Below are positions 7,108 through 57,984 of a stretch of 57,984 nucleotides of DNA, piece after piece. Origin of the DNA: Cyclobacterium sp. (GTDB lineage Bacteria > Bacteroidota > Bacteroidia > Cytophagales > Cyclobacteriaceae). A program made the translations under genes and the position numbers. The notes beneath the pieces were generated by a model. It saw only the letters and a list, made by a program, of their open reading frames with translations. It was not told the origin of the DNA and ran no database searches. Each line of letters begins with the position of its first letter. Positions within the stretch are counted from its first letter, which is position 1. The DNA lies in the NCBI RefSeq assembly GCF_014762705.1, contig NZ_JABURL010000072.1:1-57984 (forward strand), in the 5' to 3' direction.

Positions 7108-7929
7108 ATGAAAAGGTTTGCCGGACTTCTTTTGTTGGCTTTGGTAATTTTGACCGTAGCCTTCTTTATTTATAACCCTCAAGTCCTAGAAAATATCTGG
7201 ATGTGGCTGGTTGGGTTTATTGGATACGTCATTTATTTTCTGAATAAAGGAGCCGATTCTATTAAAAATCTGTTCAAAATGTCCGCTTTTTCCGAATCCC
7301 CGGAAAAGGTAAACGAAAGTTCCGGTAAAGTCCCCCTAACGCAGTTGGGAAATAAGGAACCGGATTTGGCCCACCTGGAAAATTTGTTCAATAAATTTCG
7401 GCAGGAAGAAGAAAGTTTATCTCAAACAGACCTTACGGTATTGAGGTACACAGATGATGGGAAAACCACGCTGGGATTAATGTATGTTGATGGGCGTTTC
7501 TTTGCCTACACATTGGAGGACACCCATAGGGATGAGAAAATTTCCGGCAATACGCGGATTCCTGAGGGCAGGTATCCCTTGTCCATTAACCCAAACCTAA
7601 CCGAGCTAACCCAAAGATACAGAAATCGTTTTCCCTGGTTTGAATACCATATAGAAATCCAAAATATCCCCAATTATGACCTGGTATATATTCACATTGG
7701 CAATACGCATGAGGATACAAGGGGCTGTATTTTATTGGCAGACGGAGTCAATGCAGCCTCTGCGGAAAAAATGGTCACTCATTCGCAAAAGGCCTACGAG
7801 CGGTTTTATCAATCCATTTATCCAAGAGTAAGCAGCAATACTCCGCTTAGTATCCGGATTTTAAATGAAGATTGGATAAAAAAAGCCACCATTAAATCAA
7901 CTACTTCACAAGCTATTCCTCAAACCTGA
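7108..7929 (+). CDS. Membrane-anchored DUF5675 protein
   Basis: The 273-residue product has two N-terminal hydrophobic segments (about 5-22 and 30-46), a linker, and a C-terminal domain (about 107-255) of the DUF5675 type, with YTLEDTHRD and the strongly conserved motif HIGN (196-199) followed by DTRGCIL (203-209). DUF5675 has no established function. The spacing of H196, T204, G206 and C207 resembles the H...[ST]xGC active site of YkuD-type L,D-transpeptidases, but that likeness is only my reading. It is the first gene of a four-gene operon with a muramidase-domain protein 30 bases downstream, which points to peptidoglycan or envelope work. Confidence 0.75.
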   Translation: MKRFAGLLLLALVILTVAFFIYNPQVLENIWMWLVGFIGYVIYFLNKGADSIKNLFKMSAFSESPEKVNESSGKVPLTQLGNKEPDLAHLENLFNKFRQEEESLSQTDLTVLRYTDDGKTTLGLMYVDGRFFAYTLEDTHRDEKISGNTRIPEGRYPLSINPNLTELTQRYRNRFPWFEYHIEIQNIPNYDLVYIHIGNTHEDTRGCILLADGVNAASAEKMVTHSQKAYERFYQSIYPRVSSNTPLSIRILNEDWIKKATIKSTTSQAIPQT

Positions 7930-7959
7930 GAAACACTTCAACAGACATTGACAGTAATT

Positions 7960-9684
7960 ATGGAAACGGATAAAAAAAATAGCACAAGCCCAGAAGAAAA
8001 GAAAAAGGTTTTCTCAGAAAGAAGATATTTGTACATCCATATTGGGTCAATTTTCCTGATCATGCTGGCCGTACTGGTGTTTATTGTTCCTGGTATGGAA
8101 ACAACCAACCAATTGCTAGCCTCTGGACTGGTAGTTGTGACAGGCCTGATATTTATTTATGGTTTATTGGCCAGGTACTTCGGCCCTAAATCAAAGGACC
8201 GAAACCCAAATTACAATCCTTACCATACCTTTTTTTTCAAAGGCACCGTCATCCTATCTACCGTATTGGTGGTTTTTGGAATCCTTGGGGCCTTTTTTGT
8301 CTATGTGGAGTATGACAATCTCTTTCAGGCAGTTGGATTGGCCACTTCTGTAGTTTGGATAGCGCTTTTCCTGATTTACTTCATGTGGTCGGTTTACCAT
8401 TACAATATCAATTATGGGCTGACGGATCAGGATTGGCAGCGAATATATGAGGCCAAAGACCGGTACAGTCAGGGAATGCCGGTAAAAGCTTCCGAAATGT
8501 CCATGCCTGAACACAATCCCTACCGGAGCCAAACATTTGGGCTTCCTCCCGGAACGGTGCGGGGAATGATCGCATTTACCTTGTTGATGGGCGGAATGGC
8601 CCTACTCATCGTAAGTTTCGGAACCCAATATACCGGGGTTGATGCTGCCCTGCTCAGCCAGCAATTTGAATTCTTTGAAACGGCATTTTTGATGATGATT
8701 GCCTTTTATTTTGGAGATAAATCCCTTAAATATTTACAAACCAGGTGGGTAAGCAGGGACCGACCTGATGAAAACCAAAGCAGTCAAAATAAATCTGCCG
8801 GTACTGCTACCACCTCCTCAAGCGATGTTCCCGCTCATCCCTTAAGCAGTTTGGACATGGACAATAGCCTCTTTGCCATGGAGGATGCTGATTTTGCCAG
8901 CAAAGCACCTGATTCAGAAAGTGAATTAGACGAGCAGCGCGTGTCACTTTCAACGTCTTTCGACAATCAATCTGAAGAAATCTTGCAAAGGGAAGAATAT
9001 GTGCAAATCAAAGACAATATTAATAGTAAAATTTTAAGTGATATGGATATCCTGCAGGCTCTGGATGAATTGGAACAGCGGGATAAAATAAAAATTAGTC
9101 TGCCAGTAATCAAAGCCATAGTCGCTGTAGAATCGGCAGGAAGGGGTCATTTGAATGACGGAAGGGCCAAAATCCTTTTTGAAGGACATAAATTTTGGTA
9201 TTGGCTGGAAAAATTTGGAAAGGACCCCAAAGCCCTTAGTGTTGGCAAAGAACACATTATCTATGAAAAGTGGACCAGAAAGCATTATCGGGTGGGTGCA
9301 AAGGAATATGAACGGCTCGAAGCGGCCAAAAGCATTGACCCCAAAGCTGCTGTATATGCTACCTCCTGGGGATTGTTTCAGATTCTGGGAGAAAACATGG
9401 AACATCATATTAAGGCCAGGAAATACAAAAACGTGGTGGAATTTGAGGCCCAGCAACATGAATCTGAATATGTTCATTTTTTGGATTTCCTGGAATTTAT
9501 AAAATCCAAAAAAGTCCGCGGAAAGGCATTGATAGACTATATATCCGAGAAAGAGCAAGACAATTATGATTGGGAGTCTTTTGCATATGGATACAATGGT
9601 AGTGGCTATAAAGTCAATCATTACCATATAAAAATGAAAAACCACTACGAAAAATTCAAAAAAGAGGGGACATGGTTGACATGA
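7960..9684 (+). CDS. Six-helix membrane protein with C-terminal N-acetylmuramidase (DUF3380) domain
   Basis: This 574-residue protein joins a membrane region to a peptidoglycan hydrolase. Hydrophobic segments lie at about 27-44, 53-72, 93-115, 124-145, 203-222 and 238-253. A Ser/Asp/Glu-rich linker (about 265-360) leads to a domain (about 375-572) with the DUF3380 N-acetylmuramidase pattern: IVAVESAGRG, with E391 the likely catalytic acid, then ILFEGHKFW, and later ATSWGLFQILG. The ATG at 7960 is preferred; an in-frame TTG lies four codons upstream (7948). The stop overlaps the next gene by 4 bases (ATGA). An even number of helices would put the enzyme domain on the same side as the N terminus, a point worth testing. 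Confidence 0.8.
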   Translation: METDKKNSTSPEEKKKVFSERRYLYIHIGSIFLIMLAVLVFIVPGMETTNQLLASGLVVVTGLIFIYGLLARYFGPKSKDRNPNYNPYHTFFFKGTVILSTVLVVFGILGAFFVYVEYDNLFQAVGLATSVVWIALFLIYFMWSVYHYNINYGLTDQDWQRIYEAKDRYSQGMPVKASEMSMPEHNPYRSQTFGLPPGTVRGMIAFTLLMGGMALLIVSFGTQYTGVDAALLSQQFEFFETAFLMMIAFYFGDKSLKYLQTRWVSRDRPDENQSSQNKSAGTATTSSSDVPAHPLSSLDMDNSLFAMEDADFASKAPDSESELDEQRVSLSTSFDNQSEEILQREEYVQIKDNINSKILSDMDILQALDELEQRDKIKISLPVIKAIVAVESAGRGHLNDGRAKILFEGHKFWYWLEKFGKDPKALSVGKEHIIYEKWTRKHYRVGAKEYERLEAAKSIDPKAAVYATSWGLFQILGENMEHHIKARKYKNVVEFEAQQHESEYVHFLDFLEFIKSKKVRGKALIDYISEKEQDNYDWESFAYGYNGSGYKVNHYHIKMKNHYEKFKKEGTWLT

Positions 9685-47328: not shown

Positions 47329-48882
47329 TTATTCTACATCCCACCAAACACGGGTAGTAATTCTGTCTTCACCCTGAACACCAACGGCCTGTTCGTAATT
47401 TTCACGGTTTAAAGCCTGCAAACTGCTTGGATACATAAACCTTACCGGAACTGAATCGATAAATGCCGCCGGTCCAGGTTGTATTTCAGGAATCCCGGTC
47501 CTTCTCCAATCAAACCAGCCTTCAAGACCGTTGAAAAACAGGGCCAACCATTTTTGGGTACCAATTTTTCTCAACTTTTCTTCCTGGCTACCATCATAAA
47601 TTACCTGATCCTGTGAAAAATATACCGGCGAAGGCTGTACCGCATCAGCCAGAACATTGAGGTTGGCAACTCTTAAGCGCTCTTCGTAATAGTCGAATGA
47701 TGCCCGCATTCCGTTTTCATAATACGTTCCGGCATCTCCTACCGAGATGTACCCCTTTTCCCTTGCTTCTGCCAAAATAAACTGCAACTCCGGATATCCC
47801 ATCAATATGGTTTGAAAACCAACCGGGGAAGCAAATTCAGAACAAGTCAGACAGGAAAACAGTAATCCAACCCTGGAAATAAAATTGGATCCCCCCTTAT
47901 TGGGATCACCAGAGGGAGAATAGCCATAAGCATTCTCATCAGCCAAGCCATTGGGTACTCCTGCATAATCTTCAGGTGCGCCAATAAGACCTGCACCGCT
48001 GTCATTTGTAGGCTGAAAGTAAGCAAACAATCTGGGGTCTTCCATATCTTTTAAATAGCCTTCAATTGTGGTACTTAAACGGTATTCATCAAAGGAACCA
48101 GACCTGGTGGTATACAGGTAATGTTGATTGGGTACATCCTGAAGGTATTGCAAGGCAGCATTATCCGCGTTGTTTTCAAATAAGGGAAATTGACCTGGAT
48201 TACCGACAATGGCCTGCATGGCCGTAGAAGGGTCTTCCCTGTCAGAAAGCCTCATCAATGCTCTTAGCCGCAAGGAATTGGCTAATTTTCTCCATTTCAT
48301 AACATCACCTTGAAAAAGAATATCTCCTTCTATCCCCTCCGAAGAGCTACCCAACAGCTGATTGGCCCGTTCCAAATCAGCCAATATCCCATCATAAATG
48401 ACATCCTGCCGGTCAAATCTTGGATAATTGATCCCTTCTTTGGCACCTATGGCCTCGGAATAAGGCAGGTCTCCGTAGGCATCCGTCATAAAGGCATACA
48501 TCAGAGACTTCATAACAAGCGCTGCTCCAACGTAATTGTTCTCTCCCAATTCTCCGGAAATGATTACCATGTTGTTCACATCCCGCAGGGTATTATAAAA
48601 AACACTGTAAGGATTGCCTTCAGGTCCCCAGTTGTACCGATCTTCGTTGGTAAACTGAATTTTCGCGGTGTATTGCATGACCACGTTTCCTATGCCCCAG
48701 CCTTTTCCAATGATTTCATTAGCCGTGTTTCTGATAATGTTGGGCAATAAAAGAGAGGAGGAAACCGTCTCCGGGCTATTGGGATTTCGGTTTACTTCTT
48801 CAAAATCCTTATCGCAACTGACTAGCCCCATAAACAGCAATAATGAGAGGGCGCTGAATAAATATTTATATGTCGATTTCAT
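47329..48882 (-). CDS. SusD/RagB family outer-membrane lipoprotein
   Basis: The ATG at 48882 places a lipoprotein signal at the N terminus (LLLFMGLVSC, then DKDFEEVNRNPNSPE), giving 517 residues; the longer open frame upstream is unlikely to be translated. NPNSPE, the tetratricopeptide-like region with WRKLANSLRLRALMRLSD, and the C-terminal QKWLALFFNGLEGWFDWRRT fit the SusD-like_2 group. SusD proteins cap the SusC channel and bind the nutrient. This group is not limited to glycans; the downstream phospholipase C suggests a lipid-derived or phosphate-ester ligand. Confidence 0.93.
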   Translation of the reverse strand: MKSTYKYLFSALSLLLFMGLVSCDKDFEEVNRNPNSPETVSSSLLLPNIIRNTANEIIGKGWGIGNVVMQYTAKIQFTNEDRYNWGPEGNPYSVFYNTLRDVNNMVIISGELGENNYVGAALVMKSLMYAFMTDAYGDLPYSEAIGAKEGINYPRFDRQDVIYDGILADLERANQLLGSSSEGIEGDILFQGDVMKWRKLANSLRLRALMRLSDREDPSTAMQAIVGNPGQFPLFENNADNAALQYLQDVPNQHYLYTTRSGSFDEYRLSTTIEGYLKDMEDPRLFAYFQPTNDSGAGLIGAPEDYAGVPNGLADENAYGYSPSGDPNKGGSNFISRVGLLFSCLTCSEFASPVGFQTILMGYPELQFILAEAREKGYISVGDAGTYYENGMRASFDYYEERLRVANLNVLADAVQPSPVYFSQDQVIYDGSQEEKLRKIGTQKWLALFFNGLEGWFDWRRTGIPEIQPGPAAFIDSVPVRFMYPSSLQALNRENYEQAVGVQGEDRITTRVWWDVE

Positions 48883-49011
48883 GTGTGTATAATTTGTTTT
48901 TAAAGACCACATATCTGTCCTTCGGCAAACAGAAAATAGCGCAGGTTTTGTAGTTATCTCCTTCTTTGTTGCTTGCTCCATGCTCGATTTCATATCGGTC
49001 TTATTTTTTTA

Positions 49012-52000
49012 TTAAAATTTAAGGTTCAAATTAAAACCTATACTTCTGGTGGACGGGAAGGCCATATCCTCAACTCCGGGTATGAGTGTTCCGCCGCTCA
49101 TTGACATGGTTTCCGGATCAAAGTGCGGGTTTTCAGTCCATAGCGCCAGGTTCCTGGCAACAAGGGAAAAGCGGGCTTCCTGGAAAGGCAATTTACTCAT
49201 GGCAGCACCTGGCAAATTGTATCCCAGGGTGATTTCCCTTAATTTCACAAATGAGGCATCGTACTTGGCGGCTTCCACATTGCTTCGCTCGTAATACCTG
49301 TTGTGCCAATCCCTTGAACTAATTTTCATTTCATTTGGCACATAACTTCCGTCCGATGTCTGAATTACACCGGGACTAATGATGCCATTTCCCTCTATCG
49401 ATAAATCATAGCCATTTTCTCTGCCTAACAATGTCTCCTCCAGCTGTCCTGAAGTGCTACCAATGGTTTTTGTTCTGGACACCACAATGCCACCATACCT
49501 GATGTCAAACAGAAACCCGAAAGACAATCTTTTATAATTGAAATTATTTTGTATGCCCAGCATCCAATCGGGATTATAATTTCCCTGAAATACCAATTCC
49601 GTGGCTGTCAAAGGGGTTCCCGAGGTATTGTGAATGATTTGACCAAAATAGGGGCTATTGGCATCAGTTACTCTGGCAAAACCTCTTCCGTAGATATTCC
49701 CCATTCTTTCGCCAATCCTGGCCTGAATGGTCGCTCCATTTCTACCTACCATGGAGTAGGTATCCAGGTCATCTGTCAGCTCCAATACTTTACTTCTGTT
49801 TCTGGTGAAATTGGCCATTACATTCCATTTCAAACCATTGACTTTCTGAATCGGACTTCCCGACAAAACCAATTCAACCCCGTTGTTTTGTATTTCTCCG
49901 GCATTGATAATCCTGCTGGCGTATCCTGTGGAAATGTCAAGTTCTATGGGAATGATCTGATTTCTGGTCCGGTTGTCATAGTAGGTGAAGTCCAGCCCTA
50001 ACCTGCCCTTCAAAAGCCTGAGATCCGCCCCAATTTCAAAGGATCCGGTCCTCTCTGGTTTTAATGAAGCATTGGCAAGCCTGTTGGATTCGGTTTTACT
50101 TTGAATGGATCCCCAGGCTGTTGCCGGATTGAAAACATTCGTAAGGCTATACGGATTGGTGTCATTTCCCACCTCGGCATAGGCCGCCCTGACTTTGAAA
50201 AAAGAGACCGCTTCCGGTAAAGTAACCATATCAGAAATGATACCACTCATGGTAGCTGATGGATAAAAATAACTGTTGTTCCCTATAGGAAGGGTACTGG
50301 ACCAGTCATTTCTGCCTGTAATGTCCAAAAACAAGATATTATTGTAACCTATCTGGCTAAATCCATAAATGGAATTGATTCTTTTTTCAGAGACCATGTG
50401 GTCAACCTGAAGATTAACTGCAGTATTGGTGAAATTATAAATTCCCGGGATCAGCAATTGAGGGGCCATGGTACGGGTAAACCTGTTTTCCTGTACCATT
50501 TGATTGCCTCCCAATGATAGTGAGTAAGACCATTTCACATTTTCTGTTTCAGAATAAGTCAACAAAAAATCCGTATTCCTCTCGCTGAAGTATACCGCAT
50601 CTTCCCGGTAACTTCCCAGAGGAAACCTCATGGTACTGAAGGCTCTTTTTCGGTCCCTCAGGTCATTATACTGATCTAAACCAGTTCTGACCATCAGGTT
50701 TAATTTATCCAATATTTTGTAATTGGCCACCACATTCCCAAATACCCTGTCTTTGGACTGCCCGTTGGTATTTTCATAAACGTTGAAATAAGGGTTATCG
50801 TGGTAATTGTAGTTGTAATTGAACTGCTGCCTTCCCTCAAGGCCTGGCATCCAATAATCTCTAAGGTTTCCTGTGTTGATCTGTCTGCCGTACCAAATCC
50901 ACAGGTACATCAGGCTCTCCGTTCCATAACTGATGCTGGGACGGTTTCCACTATTGGTTTTCTGGTAATTGATAGCCGTGGTAATGGTCAGACGATCCGT
51001 GATCTTACTTGTACCATTAAAAGCAAGGGTGTTTCTTTTCAGATCCGTATTGGGTATCGTTCCTTTTTGGTCAAGATTGGTCCAGGAAAACCGGAAATTT
51101 GATTTCTCGTTGCCGGAGGCTATGGAAACATTATTGGATAAGGTTACCCCTGTTTGAAAAAAGTCTTTGATGTTATTGGGTTGCGATACCCATGGAGTTG
51201 GCGTGATGGTACTGCCTTCAGGTGCGTTCAAATCTCCACCTCTAAACCCTGCTACACTCCTGGGTGAGTCAAACTGAGGAAGAGAAGTTCCCTGGTCCAT
51301 TTCAGGTCCCCAACTTTCATCTACGCCATCCGCAATACCTGCCCCTGCCCCATTGACAAAAGAAAATAAACCGTTATTTCCCTGTCCGTACTTGTCTTGC
51401 CAATCAGGAAGTACCAGGGGGGTATCGAAAGTCGTATTGGAATTGATGCTAACACCCAGACCCTTTTTGTTCTTTCCGGATTTTGTGGTGATCAAAATGG
51501 CACCATTGGCCGCCCTGGAGCCATAAAGGGCTGCAGCAGCAGGGCCCTTCAAAATGCTCATGGATGCAATGTCATCCGGATTGATTTCTCCGGCAGGATT
51601 CCCATAATCCACTTCCTGGTTACCGGAACCGGATGAACCCACAATATTGTTGCTGATCGGAACACCATCCACCACAAACAAGGGCTGGTTGGCATTGATG
51701 TTCAAGGATGATTCACCCCTGATGGTAACCCTGGAGGACCCTCCAATACCACTGGAAGAATTGGTGATTTGTACACCGGCCACTCTTCCGCTAAGAGAGT
51801 TCATCACATTCGTTTCCCTGGCCTCGGTAAAACGATCTCCGTCCACCGCCTGCACGGAATAACCCAGTGCTTTGGTCTCTCTTTCCACACCCAATGCGGT
51901 AACGACCACCTCACTCAATTCTTCGGAGGAGTATTCCAATACCACATCAATGGTGGACCGGTTTCCCACGACCAGCTCCTTGGATTGAAAACCAATGTAG

Positions 52001-52269
52001 GAAAACACGAGTATGGCTTCATTGGAGGGTACTTCCAGTTCATACCTGCCATCCAGGTCTGTAACTGTGCCTCGGGTGGTACCCTGTATTAACACAGAGG
52101 CACCTAACACCGGCTCCCCATTGGAGCTTTCCGTAACCAGGCCCTGCACAGTTCTGGATTGGGCCCATAAAGCTTGGCTATTGACCAAGAGCAATAGCAG
52201 GGACATTAGTCCCATACATTTTAATGTACGGGAAAATTGCCCTCTAACATAAGGTACTGATTTCATCAT
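49012..52269 (-). CDS. SusC/RagA family TonB-linked outer-membrane transporter
   Basis: The 1085-residue protein has a signal peptide (about 15-36, ending ALWAQ) and a carboxypeptidase-like regulatory domain (VTESSNGEPVLGASVLIQG to LVFSYIGFQ). The plug domain carries the SusC signature region GPAAAALYGSRAANGAILITTKSG, and a 22-strand barrel ends in RSIGFNLNLKF with C-terminal Phe. It has no N-terminal STN domain, so no transenvelope anti-sigma signalling is expected, and no sigma/anti-sigma genes lie nearby. It pairs with the SusD protein encoded next (129-base gap). Confidence 0.95.
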   Translation of the reverse strand: MMKSVPYVRGQFSRTLKCMGLMSLLLLLVNSQALWAQSRTVQGLVTESSNGEPVLGASVLIQGTTRGTVTDLDGRYELEVPSNEAILVFSYIGFQSKELVVGNRSTIDVVLEYSSEELSEVVVTALGVERETKALGYSVQAVDGDRFTEARETNVMNSLSGRVAGVQITNSSSGIGGSSRVTIRGESSLNINANQPLFVVDGVPISNNIVGSSGSGNQEVDYGNPAGEINPDDIASMSILKGPAAAALYGSRAANGAILITTKSGKNKKGLGVSINSNTTFDTPLVLPDWQDKYGQGNNGLFSFVNGAGAGIADGVDESWGPEMDQGTSLPQFDSPRSVAGFRGGDLNAPEGSTITPTPWVSQPNNIKDFFQTGVTLSNNVSIASGNEKSNFRFSWTNLDQKGTIPNTDLKRNTLAFNGTSKITDRLTITTAINYQKTNSGNRPSISYGTESLMYLWIWYGRQINTGNLRDYWMPGLEGRQQFNYNYNYHDNPYFNVYENTNGQSKDRVFGNVVANYKILDKLNLMVRTGLDQYNDLRDRKRAFSTMRFPLGSYREDAVYFSERNTDFLLTYSETENVKWSYSLSLGGNQMVQENRFTRTMAPQLLIPGIYNFTNTAVNLQVDHMVSEKRINSIYGFSQIGYNNILFLDITGRNDWSSTLPIGNNSYFYPSATMSGIISDMVTLPEAVSFFKVRAAYAEVGNDTNPYSLTNVFNPATAWGSIQSKTESNRLANASLKPERTGSFEIGADLRLLKGRLGLDFTYYDNRTRNQIIPIELDISTGYASRIINAGEIQNNGVELVLSGSPIQKVNGLKWNVMANFTRNRSKVLELTDDLDTYSMVGRNGATIQARIGERMGNIYGRGFARVTDANSPYFGQIIHNTSGTPLTATELVFQGNYNPDWMLGIQNNFNYKRLSFGFLFDIRYGGIVVSRTKTIGSTSGQLEETLLGRENGYDLSIEGNGIISPGVIQTSDGSYVPNEMKISSRDWHNRYYERSNVEAAKYDASFVKLREITLGYNLPGAAMSKLPFQEARFSLVARNLALWTENPHFDPETMSMSGGTLIPGVEDMAFPSTRSIGFNLNLKF

Positions 52270-52621: not shown

Positions 52622-53989
52622 TCAATCTCTTAAATGAAAGGCTTTGGGATGGGTAAAGGCCCTTATTCCCAAATGTGACAAAGTGACCCCCAACCCGGAA
52701 TTTTTTCTTCCTGTCCAGGGCAAATTCGGACTTACCCTATCGCAACAGTTCCAATAGGCCGTGCCTGTGGGAAGCTGCTCTAAAATATTTTTTGCCCTTT
52801 TCTCATCTGCTGAGAAAACTGCGGCTGTCAAACCGTAATCGGTATCTTTCATTAAGGTGAGGGCTTCTTCATCGTTCGCAACGGATTGAATACCAATAAC
52901 TGGACCAAAAGTCTCTTCTTTCATAACAGCCATTTTGTGATTCACCCCTGTCAATACTGTTGGCAGCAGGTAGAACCCCTTTTCTCCCCAACGCTTACCC
53001 CCCGTCTCTAAGCGGGCACCCTGACGGATTGCATCCTGAATTTGATCCAAAATGACATCCAATTGATCCTTTCTGGTAAGGGGGCCTATAAAAGTTTTTG
53101 GATCCAAAGGGTCACCAATGGGGTATGTATTCACTTCAGTCACAAAAGCAGCTACAAAATCATCGAAGATGCGCTCATGGACGTAAATTCTCTCCACCGC
53201 ACAACAGCTTTGTCCATTGTTGTAAAATGCTCCTTCAGCCGCATTGAGGGCAGCCTGCTTGACATCAGGTACATCATCCATTACGTATAAGGGATCTTTA
53301 CCTCCAAGCTCCAATTGTACAGGAACCAGTTTTTCTGCCACTTTCTTTGCTATATATTTTCCGGTTCTGTAGGATCCGGTAAAAAAGTAGCCATCCAAAT
53401 CTGCTTCCAAAAGCATTTCTCCAACAGCAGGCCCACCAATAAAACATTCAAAAGCATTTTCTGGTACGCCTGCTTTCCAAAGCAGTTCTCTGAACTTTAA
53501 ACCGGTCAGGCTGGCATATTCAGAAGGCTTGTAGGCTACTGCATTTCCTGCTACCAAGGCATATAAAAAAACATTATAACCCACATTATAGGGAAAGTTC
53601 CAAGCTGATATATTGGCTATAACCCCCAGAGGTTCATAGACAATTAGCTCCCTGGTTGGACCATCTGCTGTTACCATTTCCTGAGACAACCATTTGGCAG
53701 CTGCCGTCTCTATATGAACTATTCGGTTATGTGCTCCTGTAATTTCATTTTTCGCTTGCTGAAGGGGTTTTCCGGTTTCCCGGCTGAGCAACAGGGACAG
53801 TTCTTCCAGGTTTTCCCTGACCAGATTACCAAAACGACTAATTATGGAAATCCTTTCCTCCAGGGGAACTTTGGCCCATTTAGACTGACCTGTTTGTAAT
53901 CTTTTTATTTTTTCATTGACACTTTCCGCATTGTCTACGGGCAATGATTCTACAAGCTGACCTGTGGCAGGGTTAATGATGTCCATCAT
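52622..53989 (-). CDS. NAD(P)-dependent aldehyde dehydrogenase
   Basis: The 455-residue enzyme shows ISAWNFPYNVG (cofactor fold), LELGGKDP with the general-base Glu, and NNGQSCCAVERIYV with the catalytic Cys. It is close to succinate-semialdehyde-type dehydrogenases by these motifs. It is the last gene of the ethanolamine-type operon and starts directly after the amidotransferase-like gene. In the proposed route it would oxidise a gamma-glutamyl-amino-aldehyde to gamma-glutamylglycine; oxidation of another aldehyde is also possible. Confidence 0.92.
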   Translation of the reverse strand: MMDIINPATGQLVESLPVDNAESVNEKIKRLQTGQSKWAKVPLEERISIISRFGNLVRENLEELSLLLSRETGKPLQQAKNEITGAHNRIVHIETAAAKWLSQEMVTADGPTRELIVYEPLGVIANISAWNFPYNVGYNVFLYALVAGNAVAYKPSEYASLTGLKFRELLWKAGVPENAFECFIGGPAVGEMLLEADLDGYFFTGSYRTGKYIAKKVAEKLVPVQLELGGKDPLYVMDDVPDVKQAALNAAEGAFYNNGQSCCAVERIYVHERIFDDFVAAFVTEVNTYPIGDPLDPKTFIGPLTRKDQLDVILDQIQDAIRQGARLETGGKRWGEKGFYLLPTVLTGVNHKMAVMKEETFGPVIGIQSVANDEEALTLMKDTDYGLTAAVFSADEKRAKNILEQLPTGTAYWNCCDRVSPNLPWTGRKNSGLGVTLSHLGIRAFTHPKAFHLRD

Positions 53990-54742
53990 TTATTGGTTTT
54001 TTACTTTTTCTATAAAATAGGAATATAACTTTAAAGGATCAAGCAGTGGTTTTCCTTTTCCGACAGAAAACTCAGGATGCCATTGAACCCCAATGATGTT
54101 TCTATTCGGGGCCATATTGGCTTCTACAGCCTCAATCATACCATCCTCGGAACACCTTGCAAGAATTTTCAAACCTTTTCCCAGTGTTTTGATTCCCTGA
54201 TGGTGAACCGAGTTTACCATTGGGTTTTCGATGCCTTTATATATTTTATCAAGGGTTTCGTTTTTTGCAAAGGTAATCTGATGCGTCAGGCTATCGTACT
54301 TTTCTGCATTCCTGTGCATAATGGACTGGGGTACCTGGGTAGCAATATCCTGGTATAGGGTCCCTCCAAAATGCACATTTAGTAGTTGTATCCCCCGGCA
54401 GATGGCAAGGATGGGTTTCTTTTGACGGATTGCAAAATCCATTATTGCCATTTCATACTTGTCCCTGTAAGGGTCTCCAAGCCATTTTCCTGCCTGTATG
54501 GGTTCCTCTCCATAAGTTTGAGGGGAAAGGTCTGTCCCACCCTGAAACACAAATCCATCCAGTTCCTTAAGTATTTCTACCAACTTATCAAAAGGAAGAT
54601 CAGGAATCAAGACCGGAAGAACCCCCTCCTGTGCAACGTACCTGAACATATCTGATTCCACATAGGCAAGATTTTTTGGTCCAAATACAAGCCTTGATGG
54701 ATCCGGATACATAAAGCAGGAGCTGATGCCTATTTTCAACAT
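53990..54742 (-). CDS. Class I glutamine-amidotransferase-like gamma-glutamyl hydrolase (PuuD-like)
   Basis: The 250-residue protein belongs to peptidase family C26. The nucleophile Cys is in LAICRGIQLLNVHFGG, and the His/Glu pair is in GVQWHPEFS. E. coli PuuD of this family hydrolyses gamma-glutamyl-GABA to glutamate and GABA. Here it sits between an alcohol and an aldehyde dehydrogenase and downstream of a glutamine-synthetase-like ligase, so it would release the gamma-glutamyl group at the end of the route. FVFQGGTDLSPQTYGEE is a family signature. Confidence 0.9.
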   Translation of the reverse strand: MLKIGISSCFMYPDPSRLVFGPKNLAYVESDMFRYVAQEGVLPVLIPDLPFDKLVEILKELDGFVFQGGTDLSPQTYGEEPIQAGKWLGDPYRDKYEMAIMDFAIRQKKPILAICRGIQLLNVHFGGTLYQDIATQVPQSIMHRNAEKYDSLTHQITFAKNETLDKIYKGIENPMVNSVHHQGIKTLGKGLKILARCSEDGMIEAVEANMAPNRNIIGVQWHPEFSVGKGKPLLDPLKLYSYFIEKVKNQ

Positions 54743-54745
54743 AAA

Positions 54746-55894
54746 TTAAAGTGCTGTGAGATAAATGGTTTCAAAATCCTTTTGGCTAACAGGCTTGGGA
54801 TTGTTTGGGTGACAAAAATCGGCAATCGCCAAAGCAGAAAGGGTAGGAATATGGAATTTATTAACACCTATTCCGGAAAGATGGGTCGGTAAGGCTAATT
54901 TCACATTCAATTCTTTGATAAAACCGCTTAATTGATGCCCTTCTCCTTTGTTAAAACCTAACTTAAGCGCCATTTGATCAAACCTTTCTTCGCTGCCTTC
55001 ATAATTGAAATCAAGACCATATGGTAAATTTACCGCATTTGCCAGACCATGGTGGGTGTCCAGTAAACTGGACAAGGGATGGGCAAGGCTGTGAACAATT
55101 CCGAGACCTTTCTGGAAGGCTATGGCCCCCATCATGGAAGCCATCAACATTTTACTTCTGGAAAGTAGATCAGGTTGTAACGTAGCCTTTTCCAAAGATT
55201 CTCCAATCAATTGAATCCCCTCTAAGGCAATCCCACTACACATCGGGTGCCAGTTTTTTGACAAATAAGCTTCAATATTGTGGGTAAGCGCATCCATGCC
55301 TGTGGCCGCTGTCACAAAAGGAGGCAAATCCAAGGTCAACTGTGGATCGGCAAAAACCATTTTTGCCATTAATGAAGGGGCGAAGAGTATCCTTTTCTTC
55401 TTGCTTTCATCCTCTGAAATGATGGCACTTCTGCCGACCTCACTTCCGGTGCCGGCTGTTGTTGGAACAGTGATAAAATGGGGGATTGGCTCAGTAACGT
55501 ATTGATCGCCTCCGATCAAATCATCATAATCAAACAAATCCCTATGGTGGTTGATACTTAAGGCAATGGCCCTGGAAACATCCAGTGCCACTCCTCCCCC
55601 AATCCCTACAATAGCATCTCTCTGTGTAGATTGATACTGTTCTTTTCCCTTAAGCACATCTGATTTTACGGGATTTTTATGTACATCCGAAAAAATGGCT
55701 ACAGCAATACCAGCGCGGGAGAGATCAGCGGTTATTTTTTTAAAAAAATCCAGTTCTTTTACCAAAGGATCGGTAACCAAAAGAGGACGGCTTAGATGAT
55801 GGGCTTTCAGGTATTCCGCAAGCTCCGCAATAACCCCTACTCCAAATCGGATCTGGGTGGGGAAATTAAAGTTGAATTTATCTTGTATATTCAT
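54746..55894 (-). CDS. Iron-containing alcohol dehydrogenase
   Basis: The 382-residue enzyme is a group III, metal-dependent alcohol dehydrogenase. NAD-binding IGGGVALDVSRAIA and PTTAGTGSEVGRSAI are clear, and the metal-binding His block is HSLAHPLSSLLDTHHGLANA. It lies 3 bases before the amidotransferase-like gene and 39 bases after the ligase gene. In the putrescine pathway this slot is filled by an amine oxidase (PuuB), so its presence argues for a substrate with a hydroxyl, such as ethanolamine. That reading is an inference. Confidence 0.92.
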   Translation of the reverse strand: MNIQDKFNFNFPTQIRFGVGVIAELAEYLKAHHLSRPLLVTDPLVKELDFFKKITADLSRAGIAVAIFSDVHKNPVKSDVLKGKEQYQSTQRDAIVGIGGGVALDVSRAIALSINHHRDLFDYDDLIGGDQYVTEPIPHFITVPTTAGTGSEVGRSAIISEDESKKKRILFAPSLMAKMVFADPQLTLDLPPFVTAATGMDALTHNIEAYLSKNWHPMCSGIALEGIQLIGESLEKATLQPDLLSRSKMLMASMMGAIAFQKGLGIVHSLAHPLSSLLDTHHGLANAVNLPYGLDFNYEGSEERFDQMALKLGFNKGEGHQLSGFIKELNVKLALPTHLSGIGVNKFHIPTLSALAIADFCHPNNPKPVSQKDFETIYLTAL

Positions 55895-55933
55895 TTTTTG
55901 TAAGGTAATAAATAGGGGTGTTTTTTGTAAAAA

Positions 55934-57298
55934 TCAGATGATTTCAAAATATCTTTTTCTTTCCCAATCGGTAACTTTAGCATCAAATTCCCTGCACTCC
56001 CATTCTCTGGTTTTACAGAAATGCTGGACAAAAGCTTCTCCAAAAAGGTCATTGGCCAAATCGGAATTTTTCATTAGGCTGCTGGCTTCTTTTAGGGAAG
56101 TAGGTATGGTTCCATTTGAAAAGTCTTTGTATCCATTACCGACAGTCGCTGTTTTATTCAATTCCAACTGCTGCTCAATTCCATATAATCCGGCTGCCAG
56201 ACAAGCGGCCATGGCCAGATAAGGGTTGACATCCGAGCCAATTACCCTGGTTTCCAGGCGGGTAGATTTTTTTCCACCAGATAGGACCCTCAGGGCAGTA
56301 GTCCGATTATCTCTCGCCCATGTAAGGGTTGTTGGTGCCCAGGCTCCTTCCACCAGCCTTTTGTAGCTATTTATGGTGGGCGCAAACATGGGAAGCATAT
56401 AGGGCAGACAGTGCAATTGACCAGCAATATACTGTTCCATCACTTTGCTCATCTGCCATTTCCCCTCTGGCTCATAGAAAAGGTTATTTTCAAGGTTTTT
56501 GTCCCAAAGGCTTTGGTGGACATGTCCTCCGTTTCCGGGAAGTGTCTCAGACCACTTGGCCATGAAGGTGGCCATCAATCCATGCTTGTAGGCAATTTCC
56601 TTTACGCTGGTTTTAAACAAAACTGCCCGGTCTGCAGCCAGGAGAATTTCGCTGTATTGAATTGCCGCTTCGTACACGCCAGGGCCTGTTTCGGTATGTA
56701 AACCTTCCAAAGGAATGTCAAACTTACGGCAGAGGTCAAACAAGTCATTGAAATATTCGCTTTTCAAAGAGGCCCTTAGAATTGAATAACCAAACATTCC
56801 CGGTGTCATGGGTTTGGCCAGATCCGGTTGCTCATTTCCAAAAGCTTCCGGGGTAACTTCAAAGTTAAACCATTCAAATTCCTGAGAGAATTGAGGCATA
56901 AATCCGGCATCCAGTGCTTTTTGTTTAATTCGCTTTAATAATGACCGCGGGCAAACCAAAGCTCCCTGCTCCTTGTCCTTTTCAAAATCAGCCAGAAAAA
57001 ATGGCATGTCCTGATCCCAGGGGATTTGTCTTTGGGTAGACAGATCTATCCGGGCCTGAAAATCCGGATAGCCTGTATGCCAACCTGTGACGGAAACATT
57101 ATCATAAGATTTATCCTCCATATCCCAGCCAAACACCACAGCACAAAAGCCCAAGCCCCCATCCAGCATGGAAATAAATTTATCCAGGGATACTACCTTT
57201 CCCCTCAAAACCCCATCAATATCTACTATTGCCAATTTAATCTTGTTACAGGATTTGGCTTTCAATTCTTCAATAAGACCTTCTTTTGTAGTTTTCAT
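55934..57298 (-). CDS. Glutamine synthetase family ligase, gamma-glutamyl-amine synthetase candidate
   Basis: The 454-residue protein has the glutamine synthetase catalytic fold: SQEFEWFNFE with paired glutamates, EGLHTETGPGVYEAA, the ATP/His site GNGGHVHQSL, and DNRTTALRV. It lacks the strict GlnA residues typical of nitrogen assimilation and resembles PuuA-like enzymes that join glutamate to an amine. Placed between an ethanolamine-type permease and an alcohol dehydrogenase, gamma-glutamylation of ethanolamine is the most economical proposal, as reported for GlnA4 of Streptomyces coelicolor. Putrescine or another amine cannot be excluded. Confidence 0.9.
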   Translation of the reverse strand: MKTTKEGLIEELKAKSCNKIKLAIVDIDGVLRGKVVSLDKFISMLDGGLGFCAVVFGWDMEDKSYDNVSVTGWHTGYPDFQARIDLSTQRQIPWDQDMPFFLADFEKDKEQGALVCPRSLLKRIKQKALDAGFMPQFSQEFEWFNFEVTPEAFGNEQPDLAKPMTPGMFGYSILRASLKSEYFNDLFDLCRKFDIPLEGLHTETGPGVYEAAIQYSEILLAADRAVLFKTSVKEIAYKHGLMATFMAKWSETLPGNGGHVHQSLWDKNLENNLFYEPEGKWQMSKVMEQYIAGQLHCLPYMLPMFAPTINSYKRLVEGAWAPTTLTWARDNRTTALRVLSGGKKSTRLETRVIGSDVNPYLAMAACLAAGLYGIEQQLELNKTATVGNGYKDFSNGTIPTSLKEASSLMKNSDLANDLFGEAFVQHFCKTREWECREFDAKVTDWERKRYFEII

Positions 57299-57304
57299 GT
57301 GCTG

Positions 57305-57984
57305 TCAGGCTTTGTGAATAAATAATTTGAAAAACAGGTAGGACCCCAGGAGCATGGCGAAAAATATCAAGGCCAGATTAAAATTGTAAATAACCATCGC
57401 AATCATTGATATACTTGCAATAATCAACGCTACCACAGGGAATAGCGGGTAAAAAGGAACTTTAAAAGGCCGATCCAGATCAGGTTCATTTTTTCTAAGT
57501 TTTAAACAGGCAATCATCGATAAGATGTAAAGGCCCAAAGCACCAAATACAGCGATGGTGATGATTTCACCCGTCTTGCCTGTTAGCAAAGCAATGATTC
57601 CAATGAGCATGTTAAACAGCAGGGCATTGCCCGGGGTCTTAAATCGTTTATTCACCTTGCCAATTGCCTTGGGGGCATACCCCACTCTTCCAAACTCAAA
57701 GGTGGTTCGGCCAGCTGCCAAAATGATCCCATTAAAAGAAGCCACCAGGCCGAATAGCGCAATGAAGGTTAAGATTTGATAATTCCAGTGTCCTTCTCCT
57801 ACCACCATGCTCATAGCCAGGGGCAAGGGAGAGTCTGAAGCAATTCCTGAATCATCTGGGTATACAATGGCCTCCCATCTACCAACTCCAACTGAAGACG
57901 CAAAAGACAAAATGCAGAGAATTACCATGGTAAGCAAAGCAAAACCAACGCCATTCAAAATGTTTTTCTGTGGATTTATAGTTT
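57305..57984 (-). CDS. APC-family amine permease, ethanolamine-permease-like (partial)
   Basis: The gene runs off the right edge: the frame is open to 57984 with no stop, so the N-terminal half is missing and no true start is visible. About 226 codons remain, with five or six membrane segments. ASFNGIILAAGRTTFEFGRV and GYAPKAIGKVNKRFKTPGNA, followed by LTGKTGEIITI, are close to what I know of proton-driven ethanolamine permeases (Eat) of proteobacteria. It is the first visible gene of the five-gene operon, 6 bases before the ligase gene, and probably imports the substrate. Confidence 0.87.
   Translation of the reverse strand, partial: TINPQKNILNGVGFALLTMVILCILSFASSVGVGRWEAIVYPDDSGIASDSPLPLAMSMVVGEGHWNYQILTFIALFGLVASFNGIILAAGRTTFEFGRVGYAPKAIGKVNKRFKTPGNALLFNMLIGIIALLTGKTGEIITIAVFGALGLYILSMIACLKLRKNEPDLDRPFKVPFYPLFPVVALIIASISMIAMVIYNFNLALIFFAMLLGSYLFFKLFIHKA

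What the first reader, a model, noticed from the sequence alone, without database searches (positions are those of the whole stretch)
52622..57984. Possible gamma-glutamylation pathway for ethanolamine in a Bacteroidota operon
Five contiguous minus-strand genes encode an ethanolamine-permease-like transporter, a PuuA-like ligase, an iron alcohol dehydrogenase, a PuuD-like hydrolase and an aldehyde dehydrogenase. In the putrescine (Puu) route the second step is an amine oxidase. Here an alcohol dehydrogenase takes its place, which suits an amino-alcohol. The chain would be ethanolamine to gamma-glutamylethanolamide, to the aldehyde, to gamma-glutamylglycine, to glutamate plus glycine. No EutBC lyase or microcompartment gene is seen in the window.
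Basis: partly seen in the sequence, partly recalled or inferred. Interest (0 to 1): 0.8.

Follow-up and report, generated by a model that had tools for sequence, protein, structure and literature searches.

The report
Bacteroidota gamma-glutamyl ethanolamine catabolic operon
A Bacteroidota bacterium carries a compact five-gene set that most likely imports ethanolamine, tags it with glutamate, oxidises it to glycine and releases the glutamate again; this route is already known from other bacteria, and what is new is its form in Bacteroidota, with a distinct ligase, transporter and hydrolase.

Summary
In detail: five minus-strand genes, gaps 6, 39, 3 and 0 bases, encode an Eat-type permease (cut by the contig end), a glutamine-synthetase-like ligase, an iron alcohol dehydrogenase (ADH), a PuuD-like hydrolase and an aldehyde dehydrogenase (ALDH). 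All five stand in this order in 11 of 11 other Cyclobacterium genomes and in 23 of 51 Bacteroidota loci read, those 11 included. In three relatives permease-ligase and ADH-hydrolase-ALDH lie at two places of one genome; in two, hydrolase and ALDH are fused. Permeases pass the curated ethanolamine-permease model, 8 of 8 scanned; one beside an IpuC-like ligase gave no hit. Against an exact match, the ligase lies outside the clade of the C. salexigens ligase, in its own clade whose deep placement is unresolved. Ethanolamine is inferred from gene content and transporter, not shown. Verdict: new variant of a known pathway.

The parts
57305..57982 (-). C-terminal half of an APC-family ethanolamine (Eat-type) permease; 5' part lost at the contig end
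   Evidence: TIGR00908 best hit, 174 bits on the fragment; full-length orthologue of C. plantarum passes the cut-off, 422.6 vs 381.75; contig ends at 57984
55934..57298 (-). glutamine-synthetase-like gamma-glutamyl-amine ligase, proposed ethanolamine gamma-glutamylase
   Evidence: PF00120; among solved structures best matches 11zs and C. salexigens Csal_0679, 5dm3; two ammonia-pocket residues replaced; own clade
54746..55894 (-). iron-containing alcohol dehydrogenase, proposed gamma-glutamylethanolamide dehydrogenase
   Evidence: PF00465/PF25137; 39% identical to the iron ADHs of Ruegeria, Paracoccus and Legionella ligase operons; metal-binding motifs kept
53990..54742 (-). class-I amidotransferase-like C26 hydrolase (PuuD-like), proposed gamma-glutamylglycine hydrolase
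   Evidence: PF07722; PuuD structure 6vtv among the matches; C115, H222, E224 aligned with E. coli PuuD 114/222/224
52622..53989 (-). aldehyde dehydrogenase, proposed gamma-glutamyl-aminoacetaldehyde dehydrogenase
   Evidence: PF00171; 38-39% identical to the ALDHs of Ruegeria, Paracoccus and Legionella ligase operons; C262 and E227 kept

Best explanation
The five genes are one catabolic operon for ethanolamine by gamma-glutamylation. The Eat-type permease imports ethanolamine; the ligase joins it to the gamma-carboxyl of glutamate with ATP, giving gamma-glutamylethanolamide; the iron alcohol dehydrogenase oxidises the hydroxyl to the aldehyde; the aldehyde dehydrogenase makes gamma-glutamylglycine; the C26 hydrolase releases glycine and regenerates glutamate. 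The tag keeps the amine and the reactive aldehyde masked, so neither a B12-dependent lyase nor a microcompartment is needed. Shown here: gene set, order, conservation, families, catalytic residues, permease class, absence of EutB. Inferred: every reaction, the substrate, co-transcription and induction.
For: Five genes tightly packed, same order in 23 of 51 Bacteroidota loci. In three Cyclobacteriaceae genomes permease-ligase and ADH-hydrolase-ALDH stand at two places of the same genome. In 395 Bacteroidota genomes a close ADH relative (E <= 1e-110) occurs in 8, exactly the 8 that carry the operon; the other 33 of the 41 genomes with the ligase have none. Hydrolase and ALDH are fused in 2 loci, which fits successive steps. 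The permease passes the ethanolamine-permease equivalog in 8 of 8 Bacteroidota proteins scanned (of 28 at hand) and in Thermomicrobium, where it also sits by a ligase; the permease beside an IpuC-like ligase of Microbacterium gives no NCBIfam hit at 1e-40. The ligase has the catalytic residues but not E327 and Y179. The same enzyme series is published: in Phaeobacter, ethanolamine gamma-glutamylase, gamma-glutamylethanolamide dehydrogenase, the aldehyde dehydrogenase and gamma-glutamylglycine amidohydrolase are all listed as raised on phosphorylethanolamine (fold-change column 2.56, 2.68, 2.97, 2.71); Ruegeria and Paracoccus operons of that layout carry an iron ADH. EutB not found.
Against: The ligase is not inside the clade of C. 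salexigens Csal_0679: that group and the window's group are each starred clades, it is 33% identical to the Ruegeria ligase, and the pocket differs (F169/W320 against E or V and F); W at this place is shared with the three IpuC-like ligases. The hydrolase is of another family than the N-formylglutamate amidohydrolase-type one of Ruegeria. S. coelicolor GlnA4 itself could not be placed. Whether the permease model separates ethanolamine from other amino alcohols was not tested. In what was read of the Phaeobacter paper the dehydrogenase is not called an iron enzyme ('alcohol dehydrogenase' occurs 0 times); that rests on Ruegeria and Paracoccus. No expression or growth data.
Confidence: 0.72

Rival explanations
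1. Same chemistry on another short primary amino alcohol (for example L-alaninol, 2-amino-1,3-propanediol or 3-aminopropanol), giving alanine, serine or beta-alanine instead of glycine.
For: Iron ADH plus ALDH asks only for a primary hydroxyl; the ligase shares W at the E327 position with IpuC, whose P. aurescens cluster holds P450, SDR, ALDH, amidotransferase and alanine dehydrogenase.
Against: The permease passes the ethanolamine model and the permease beside an IpuC-like ligase does not match it. No alanine dehydrogenase or monooxygenase among the five genes.
Confidence: 0.17
2. A Puu-type putrescine or polyamine pathway with an unusual second step.
For: Hydrolase and ALDH resemble PuuD (33%) and PuuC (34%); the tree cannot reject ligase clade plus PuuA (AU p 0.498); the curated putrescine-ligase model scores the window ligase (194.3 bits) like E. 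coli PuuA (198.7), both far under its cut-off of 650.
Against: No PuuB-like oxidase and no PuuE among the five genes; permease 22.6% identical to PuuP and its orthologue passes the ethanolamine model; an alcohol dehydrogenase would have no hydroxyl to act on.
Confidence: 0.05
3. The ligase is an accessory glutamine synthetase and the other genes merely neighbours.
For: Glutamine-synthetase fold and catalytic residues; an Asp (D66) is aligned with the ammonia residue D50.
Against: E327 and Y179 are replaced in all 52 Bacteroidota rows examined; gene order is kept across families; a second Gln-synt_C gene in a 723-aa frame is in the genome, by length a type III glutamine synthetase (inferred).
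Confidence: 0.02

Closest known systems
Ethanolamine gamma-glutamylation operon of Phaeobacter sp. MED193 / Chromohalobacter salexigens (EtoVWX, ethanolamine gamma-glutamylase, two dehydrogenases, gamma-glutamylglycine amidohydrolase)
   Same: Ligase, ALDH, second dehydrogenase (iron ADH in Ruegeria and Paracoccus operons of this layout) and a hydrolase in one operon
   Different: TRAP transporter instead of Eat permease; N-formylglutamate amidohydrolase-type hydrolase instead of C26 (Ruegeria); RpiR regulator present; ligase of another clade
GlnA4 cluster of Streptomyces (SCO1610-SCO1615 and relatives)
   Same: Ligase, ALDH, glutamine amidotransferase-like protein and, in several species, a putative ethanolamine permease
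   Different: Short-chain dehydrogenase instead of iron ADH; own regulator; GlnA4 was not available for the tree, only other actinobacterial ligases (L111, L119, L120) whose substrate is unknown
Legionella lytica and Photobacterium plasmid operons ligase-ALDH-iron ADH
   Same: Closest plasmid-borne ligases outside Bacteroidota (45-46%) and the same dehydrogenase pair
   Different: Order ligase-ALDH-ADH; no relative of the window's permease or hydrolase within 8 kb by tblastn; in Legionella the fourth gene is another class-I amidotransferase without a C26 match; no description of function seen
E. coli Puu pathway
   Same: Logic of the tag, PuuD-like and PuuC-like enzymes
   Different: Alcohol dehydrogenase instead of PuuB; permease of another class; ligase 30% identical
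IpuC isopropylamine cluster (Paenarthrobacter aurescens TC1 pTC1)
   Same: Ligase, dehydrogenase, ALDH and amidotransferase around a ligase of this superfamily
   Different: P450 and ferredoxin, SDR, alanine dehydrogenase; ligase of another clade

Membership tests
Ethanolamine gamma-glutamylation pathway (C. salexigens / Phaeobacter kind) | Glutamine-synthetase-like ligase without the ammonia residues | tested here: met
   E327->W, Y179->F, catalytic residues kept; D50 aligned with D66, in a region where the model is of low confidence
Ethanolamine gamma-glutamylation pathway (C. salexigens / Phaeobacter kind) | Ligase inside the clade of Csal_0679 | tested here: not met
   Separate starred clades; a sister relation is neither shown nor rejected (AU p 0.205)
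Ethanolamine gamma-glutamylation pathway (C. salexigens / Phaeobacter kind) | Alcohol dehydrogenase, aldehyde dehydrogenase and gamma-glutamyl hydrolase encoded with the ligase | tested here: met
   hydrolase of another family than in Ruegeria
Ethanolamine gamma-glutamylation pathway (C. salexigens / Phaeobacter kind) | Ethanolamine transporter | tested here: met
   TIGR00908 passed by the full-length C. plantarum orthologue and 7 other Bacteroidota permeases, 8 of 8 scanned, of 28 at hand; the window itself holds only the C-terminal half, under the cut-off
Ethanolamine gamma-glutamylation pathway (C. salexigens / Phaeobacter kind) | Ligase turns over ethanolamine; operon needed for growth on it | not testable with these tools
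   Needs enzyme assay and mutants
Puu putrescine pathway | Gamma-glutamylputrescine synthetase equivalog | tested here: inconclusive
   NF045547: window 194.3 bits, E. coli PuuA 198.7, cut-off 650; 0 of 14 control genomes over the cut-off, so the model cannot tell them apart
Puu putrescine pathway | PuuB-type FAD oxidase in the set | tested here: not met
   Iron ADH in its place; the rest of the genome was not searched for PuuB
EutBC ethanolamine lyase route | EutB large subunit | tested here: not met
   Not found in the genome; 12 of 395 Bacteroidota have it, none of the 8 with this operon
Isopropylamine (Ipu) pathway | Ligase in the IpuC clade, with monooxygenase | tested here: not met
   IpuC-like rows form their own starred clade; no P450 among the five genes
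Glutamine synthetase type I | Ammonia-binding residues E327 and Y179 | tested here: not met

The most novel reading that the evidence does not exclude
The window's ligase represents a separate gamma-glutamyl-amino-alcohol ligase family that was drawn into the catabolic operon within Bacteroidota from a wider setting: in 33 of the 41 sampled Bacteroidota genomes that have it, the same ligase, with the same pocket residues where examined, sits beside a divergent APH-like kinase, as a rule followed by an HAD-IIA phosphatase. Gamma-glutamylethanolamide (or its phosphate) would then be a metabolite handled by two systems, one that burns it and one, undescribed, that phosphorylates and dephosphorylates a related compound.
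Probability: 0.2. Interest if true: 0.65.

Novelty: new variant of a known kind. Interest (0 to 1): 0.38.

Why it matters
If true, it extends B12-free, microcompartment-free ethanolamine use to Bacteroidota (8 of 395 genomes sampled carry the operon), where ethanolamine from phospholipids is a plausible source (inference), and it shows the pathway assembled from exchangeable parts: different transporters, dehydrogenases and hydrolases around one chemical idea. It also gives a well-bounded set of enzymes for assay; as it stands none of the ligase, ADH, hydrolase and ALDH passes a curated NCBIfam cut-off.

Tried and rejected
Rejected: putrescine pathway (no oxidase among the genes, other permease); true glutamine synthetase; EutBC route. 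That an alcohol dehydrogenase in place of the amine oxidase is new was rejected because published or same-layout operons have it.

Tests that turned out not to decide: the curated putrescine-ligase model, which E. coli PuuA itself does not pass; the deep tree joins, with long branches for PuuA and GlnA. The structure model of the ligase (mean pLDDT 77.6, but under 50 at 56-76, which holds D66, aligned with D50) confirmed only the fold. The kinase-like c5 protein had no match in PDB sequences, only weak APH matches in 4 of 17 members, best E 0.0081, and was not found in the window's own genome. The paper by Vetting et al. that the Phaeobacter authors cite for C. salexigens was not held under the DOI that I tried from memory, so it was not read. 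Rows left out: the 37-row tree used 37 of the 77 sequences at hand; the c5 alignment 17 of 21; the permease scan 8 of 28. Of the 41 ligase genomes, 27 were read on wide loci, 8 on short loci, one is the window, and for 5 only coordinates were compared.
Full report
What is there. The window is the whole of contig C26 of a 6.08 Mb, 125-contig genome. Its nearest named relative is Cyclobacterium plantarum (ligase 98%), and all 11 other genomes of its genus that were searched carry the ligase. The permease frame runs off the end of the contig, so only its C-terminal half is present. Catalytic residues of hydrolase, ALDH and ADH are kept.

Conservation. Of 51 wide Bacteroidota loci, all brought in through the ligase, 23 have all five genes in the order permease, ligase, ADH, hydrolase, ALDH. 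One more locus has permease, ligase and ADH; two have ligase, ADH, hydrolase and ALDH without a permease (one on a cut contig); four have permease and ligase only; in 21 none of the four partners was found. Of the four with permease and ligase only, three (Lunatibacter salilacus, Pleomorphovibrio marinus, a Cyclobacteriaceae MAG) hold ADH, hydrolase and ALDH together at a second place of the same genome; in the fourth the contig ends in the ligase and the rest appears to follow on another contig, with an insertion. In two loci (L057, L079) hydrolase and ALDH are one 703- or 699-residue protein. In 395 Bacteroidota genomes a close ADH relative (E <= 1e-110) was found in 8, the same 8 that carry the operon. 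This linkage says that the five proteins work together.

Which substrate. An alcohol dehydrogenase with an aldehyde dehydrogenase asks for a primary amino alcohol (inference). The full-length C. plantarum permease scores 422.6 against a cut-off of 381.75 for the ethanolamine permease model; all 8 Bacteroidota permeases scanned (of 28 at hand) pass, as does the eat permease that lies by a ligase in Thermomicrobium roseum, while the permease beside an IpuC-like ligase of Microbacterium gives no hit at 1e-40. EutB was not found in the genome.

The ligase. Its best sequence matches among solved structures are 11zs and 5dm3; one search names them as a Brucella melitensis glutamine synthetase and C. 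salexigens Csal_0679. Csal_0678 is an ethanolamine-binding protein of known structure (passages of PMC12410723; PMC10132767); that the two genes are neighbours I infer from their numbers and recall. Mapped on E. coli GlnA, the window ligase keeps the metal, ATP and arginine residues but has W for E327, F for Y179 and P for N264, the same in all 52 Bacteroidota rows; D50 is aligned with D66. Krysenko et al. give replacement of E327 and Y179, and depending on the model of D50, as marks of GlnA4 as a non-ammonia ligase (passages of PMC6529630). In two careful trees the window ligase falls in a starred clade with all Bacteroidota rows and with ligases of Legionella lytica, Photobacterium, Burkholderia vietnamiensis and other proteobacterial plasmids; Csal_0679, Ruegeria and Paracoccus rows lie in another starred clade, with actinobacterial, Thermomicrobium and Meiothermus rows, and the IpuC rows form a third. 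How these join is open: AU p 0.205 for clade C plus the ethanolamine group, 0.498 for clade C plus PuuA. The curated putrescine-ligase model does not help, since E. coli PuuA scores 198.7, the window ligase 194.3, the Ruegeria ligase 196.8 and IpuC 237.2 against a cut-off of 650. One hint that the two clades can do similar work: plasmid clusters of Rhizobium and Paraburkholderia with the same aminotransferase, PLP enzyme, desaturase, hydrolase and LysE genes carry a clade C ligase in one and an ethanolamine-group ligase in the other.

What is known. Westermann et al. 2023 (PMC10132767; abstract and passages) name a Phaeobacter operon of amidohydrolase, TRAP transporter, ethanolamine gamma-glutamylase, aldehyde dehydrogenase and gamma-glutamylethanolamide dehydrogenase, raised on phosphorylethanolamine, and refer to C. 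salexigens and Agrobacterium. Ruegeria and Paracoccus plasmids have that layout, and the last gene is an iron alcohol dehydrogenase, 39% identical to the window's. Krysenko et al. 2019 (PMC6529630; passages) showed GlnA4 to be specific for ethanolamine and proposed the same later steps. A 2022 review (PMC9397018; passages) repeats this and lists Flavobacterium among genera reported to use ethanolamine, without a pathway in the passages seen. My searches for this pathway in Bacteroidota found no paper on it: no paper; the papers above and others on actinomycetes or Haloferax (listings); three papers that mention Cyclobacterium and ethanolamine, listing only, none on this by title. The library is open-access only. 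So the chemistry is known, and the Bacteroidota form, with Eat permease, iron ADH, C26 hydrolase and a ligase of another clade, is a variant.

A wider setting for the ligase. In 41 of 395 Bacteroidota genomes the ligase is found at E <= 1e-100. Eight carry the operon. In the other 33 of 33, a protein called c5 here lies on the same contig within 653 bases of the ligase, within 200 bases in 30 (coordinates, compared). c5 has 347 residues, no Pfam or NCBIfam family in the member scanned, weak APH similarity in 4 of 17 members and an invariant DWNIGN stretch that looks like a kinase catalytic loop (by eye). c6, the next frame after c5 in 20 of 21 wide loci, is an HAD-IIA phosphatase close to 2hx1. 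c5 occurs in 41 of 395 genomes; the 8 of these without the ligase beside it all have c6 next to c5, and one of them (G163) has the operon elsewhere. Ligases of the two settings differ at only three conservative columns under the thresholds used, and the operon ligases form one clade among the c5 ones. This suggests the same amine in both settings; what c5 and c6 do is unknown.

Judgement. The operon very probably degrades an amino alcohol through gamma-glutamyl intermediates (about 0.9 by my estimate), and ethanolamine is the most likely one (0.72). It is a solid extension of a known pathway rather than a new one. After checking, the putrescine rival was raised from 0.04 to 0.05, because the curated ligase model proved unable to speak against it.

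Noticed in passing
L081:8196-9236 and 7341-8186 (and 20 other wide loci): A divergent APH-like kinase (c5, no Pfam or NCBIfam family) and an HAD-IIA phosphatase (c6) next to the same ligase; c5 in 41 of 395 Bacteroidota genomes, beside the ligase in 33, with c6 but without the ligase in 8 of 8 others read; c5 not found in the window's genome.
   Followed up: partly
   Followed up: partly
Bacteroidota genomes: EutB in 12 of 395; 6 of these 12 also have the ligase in its c5 setting (33 of 395 overall), none has the operon. Three of the six are one genus and two more one family, so the excess may be kinship.
   Followed up: no
L102 and L110: Clusters with aminotransferase, PLP enzyme, desaturase, hydrolase and LysE (rhizobitoxine-like by recall) hold ligases of two different clades in the same setting.
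   Followed up: no
L048 and the 10 other Cyclobacterium loci, upstream of the operon: A gamma-glutamyltranspeptidase-like gene (named by eye, cluster c9) on the opposite strand is kept in 11 Cyclobacterium loci upstream of the operon.
   Followed up: no
window 47329-52269: SusC/SusD-like pair (named by eye) directly downstream on the same strand; relatives of it follow the operon in 8 of 11 Cyclobacterium loci; link to the operon unknown.
   Followed up: no
L117: Thermomicrobium roseum plasmid has ligase, SDR dehydrogenase and an eat permease side by side, a third arrangement of the same idea.
   Followed up: partly
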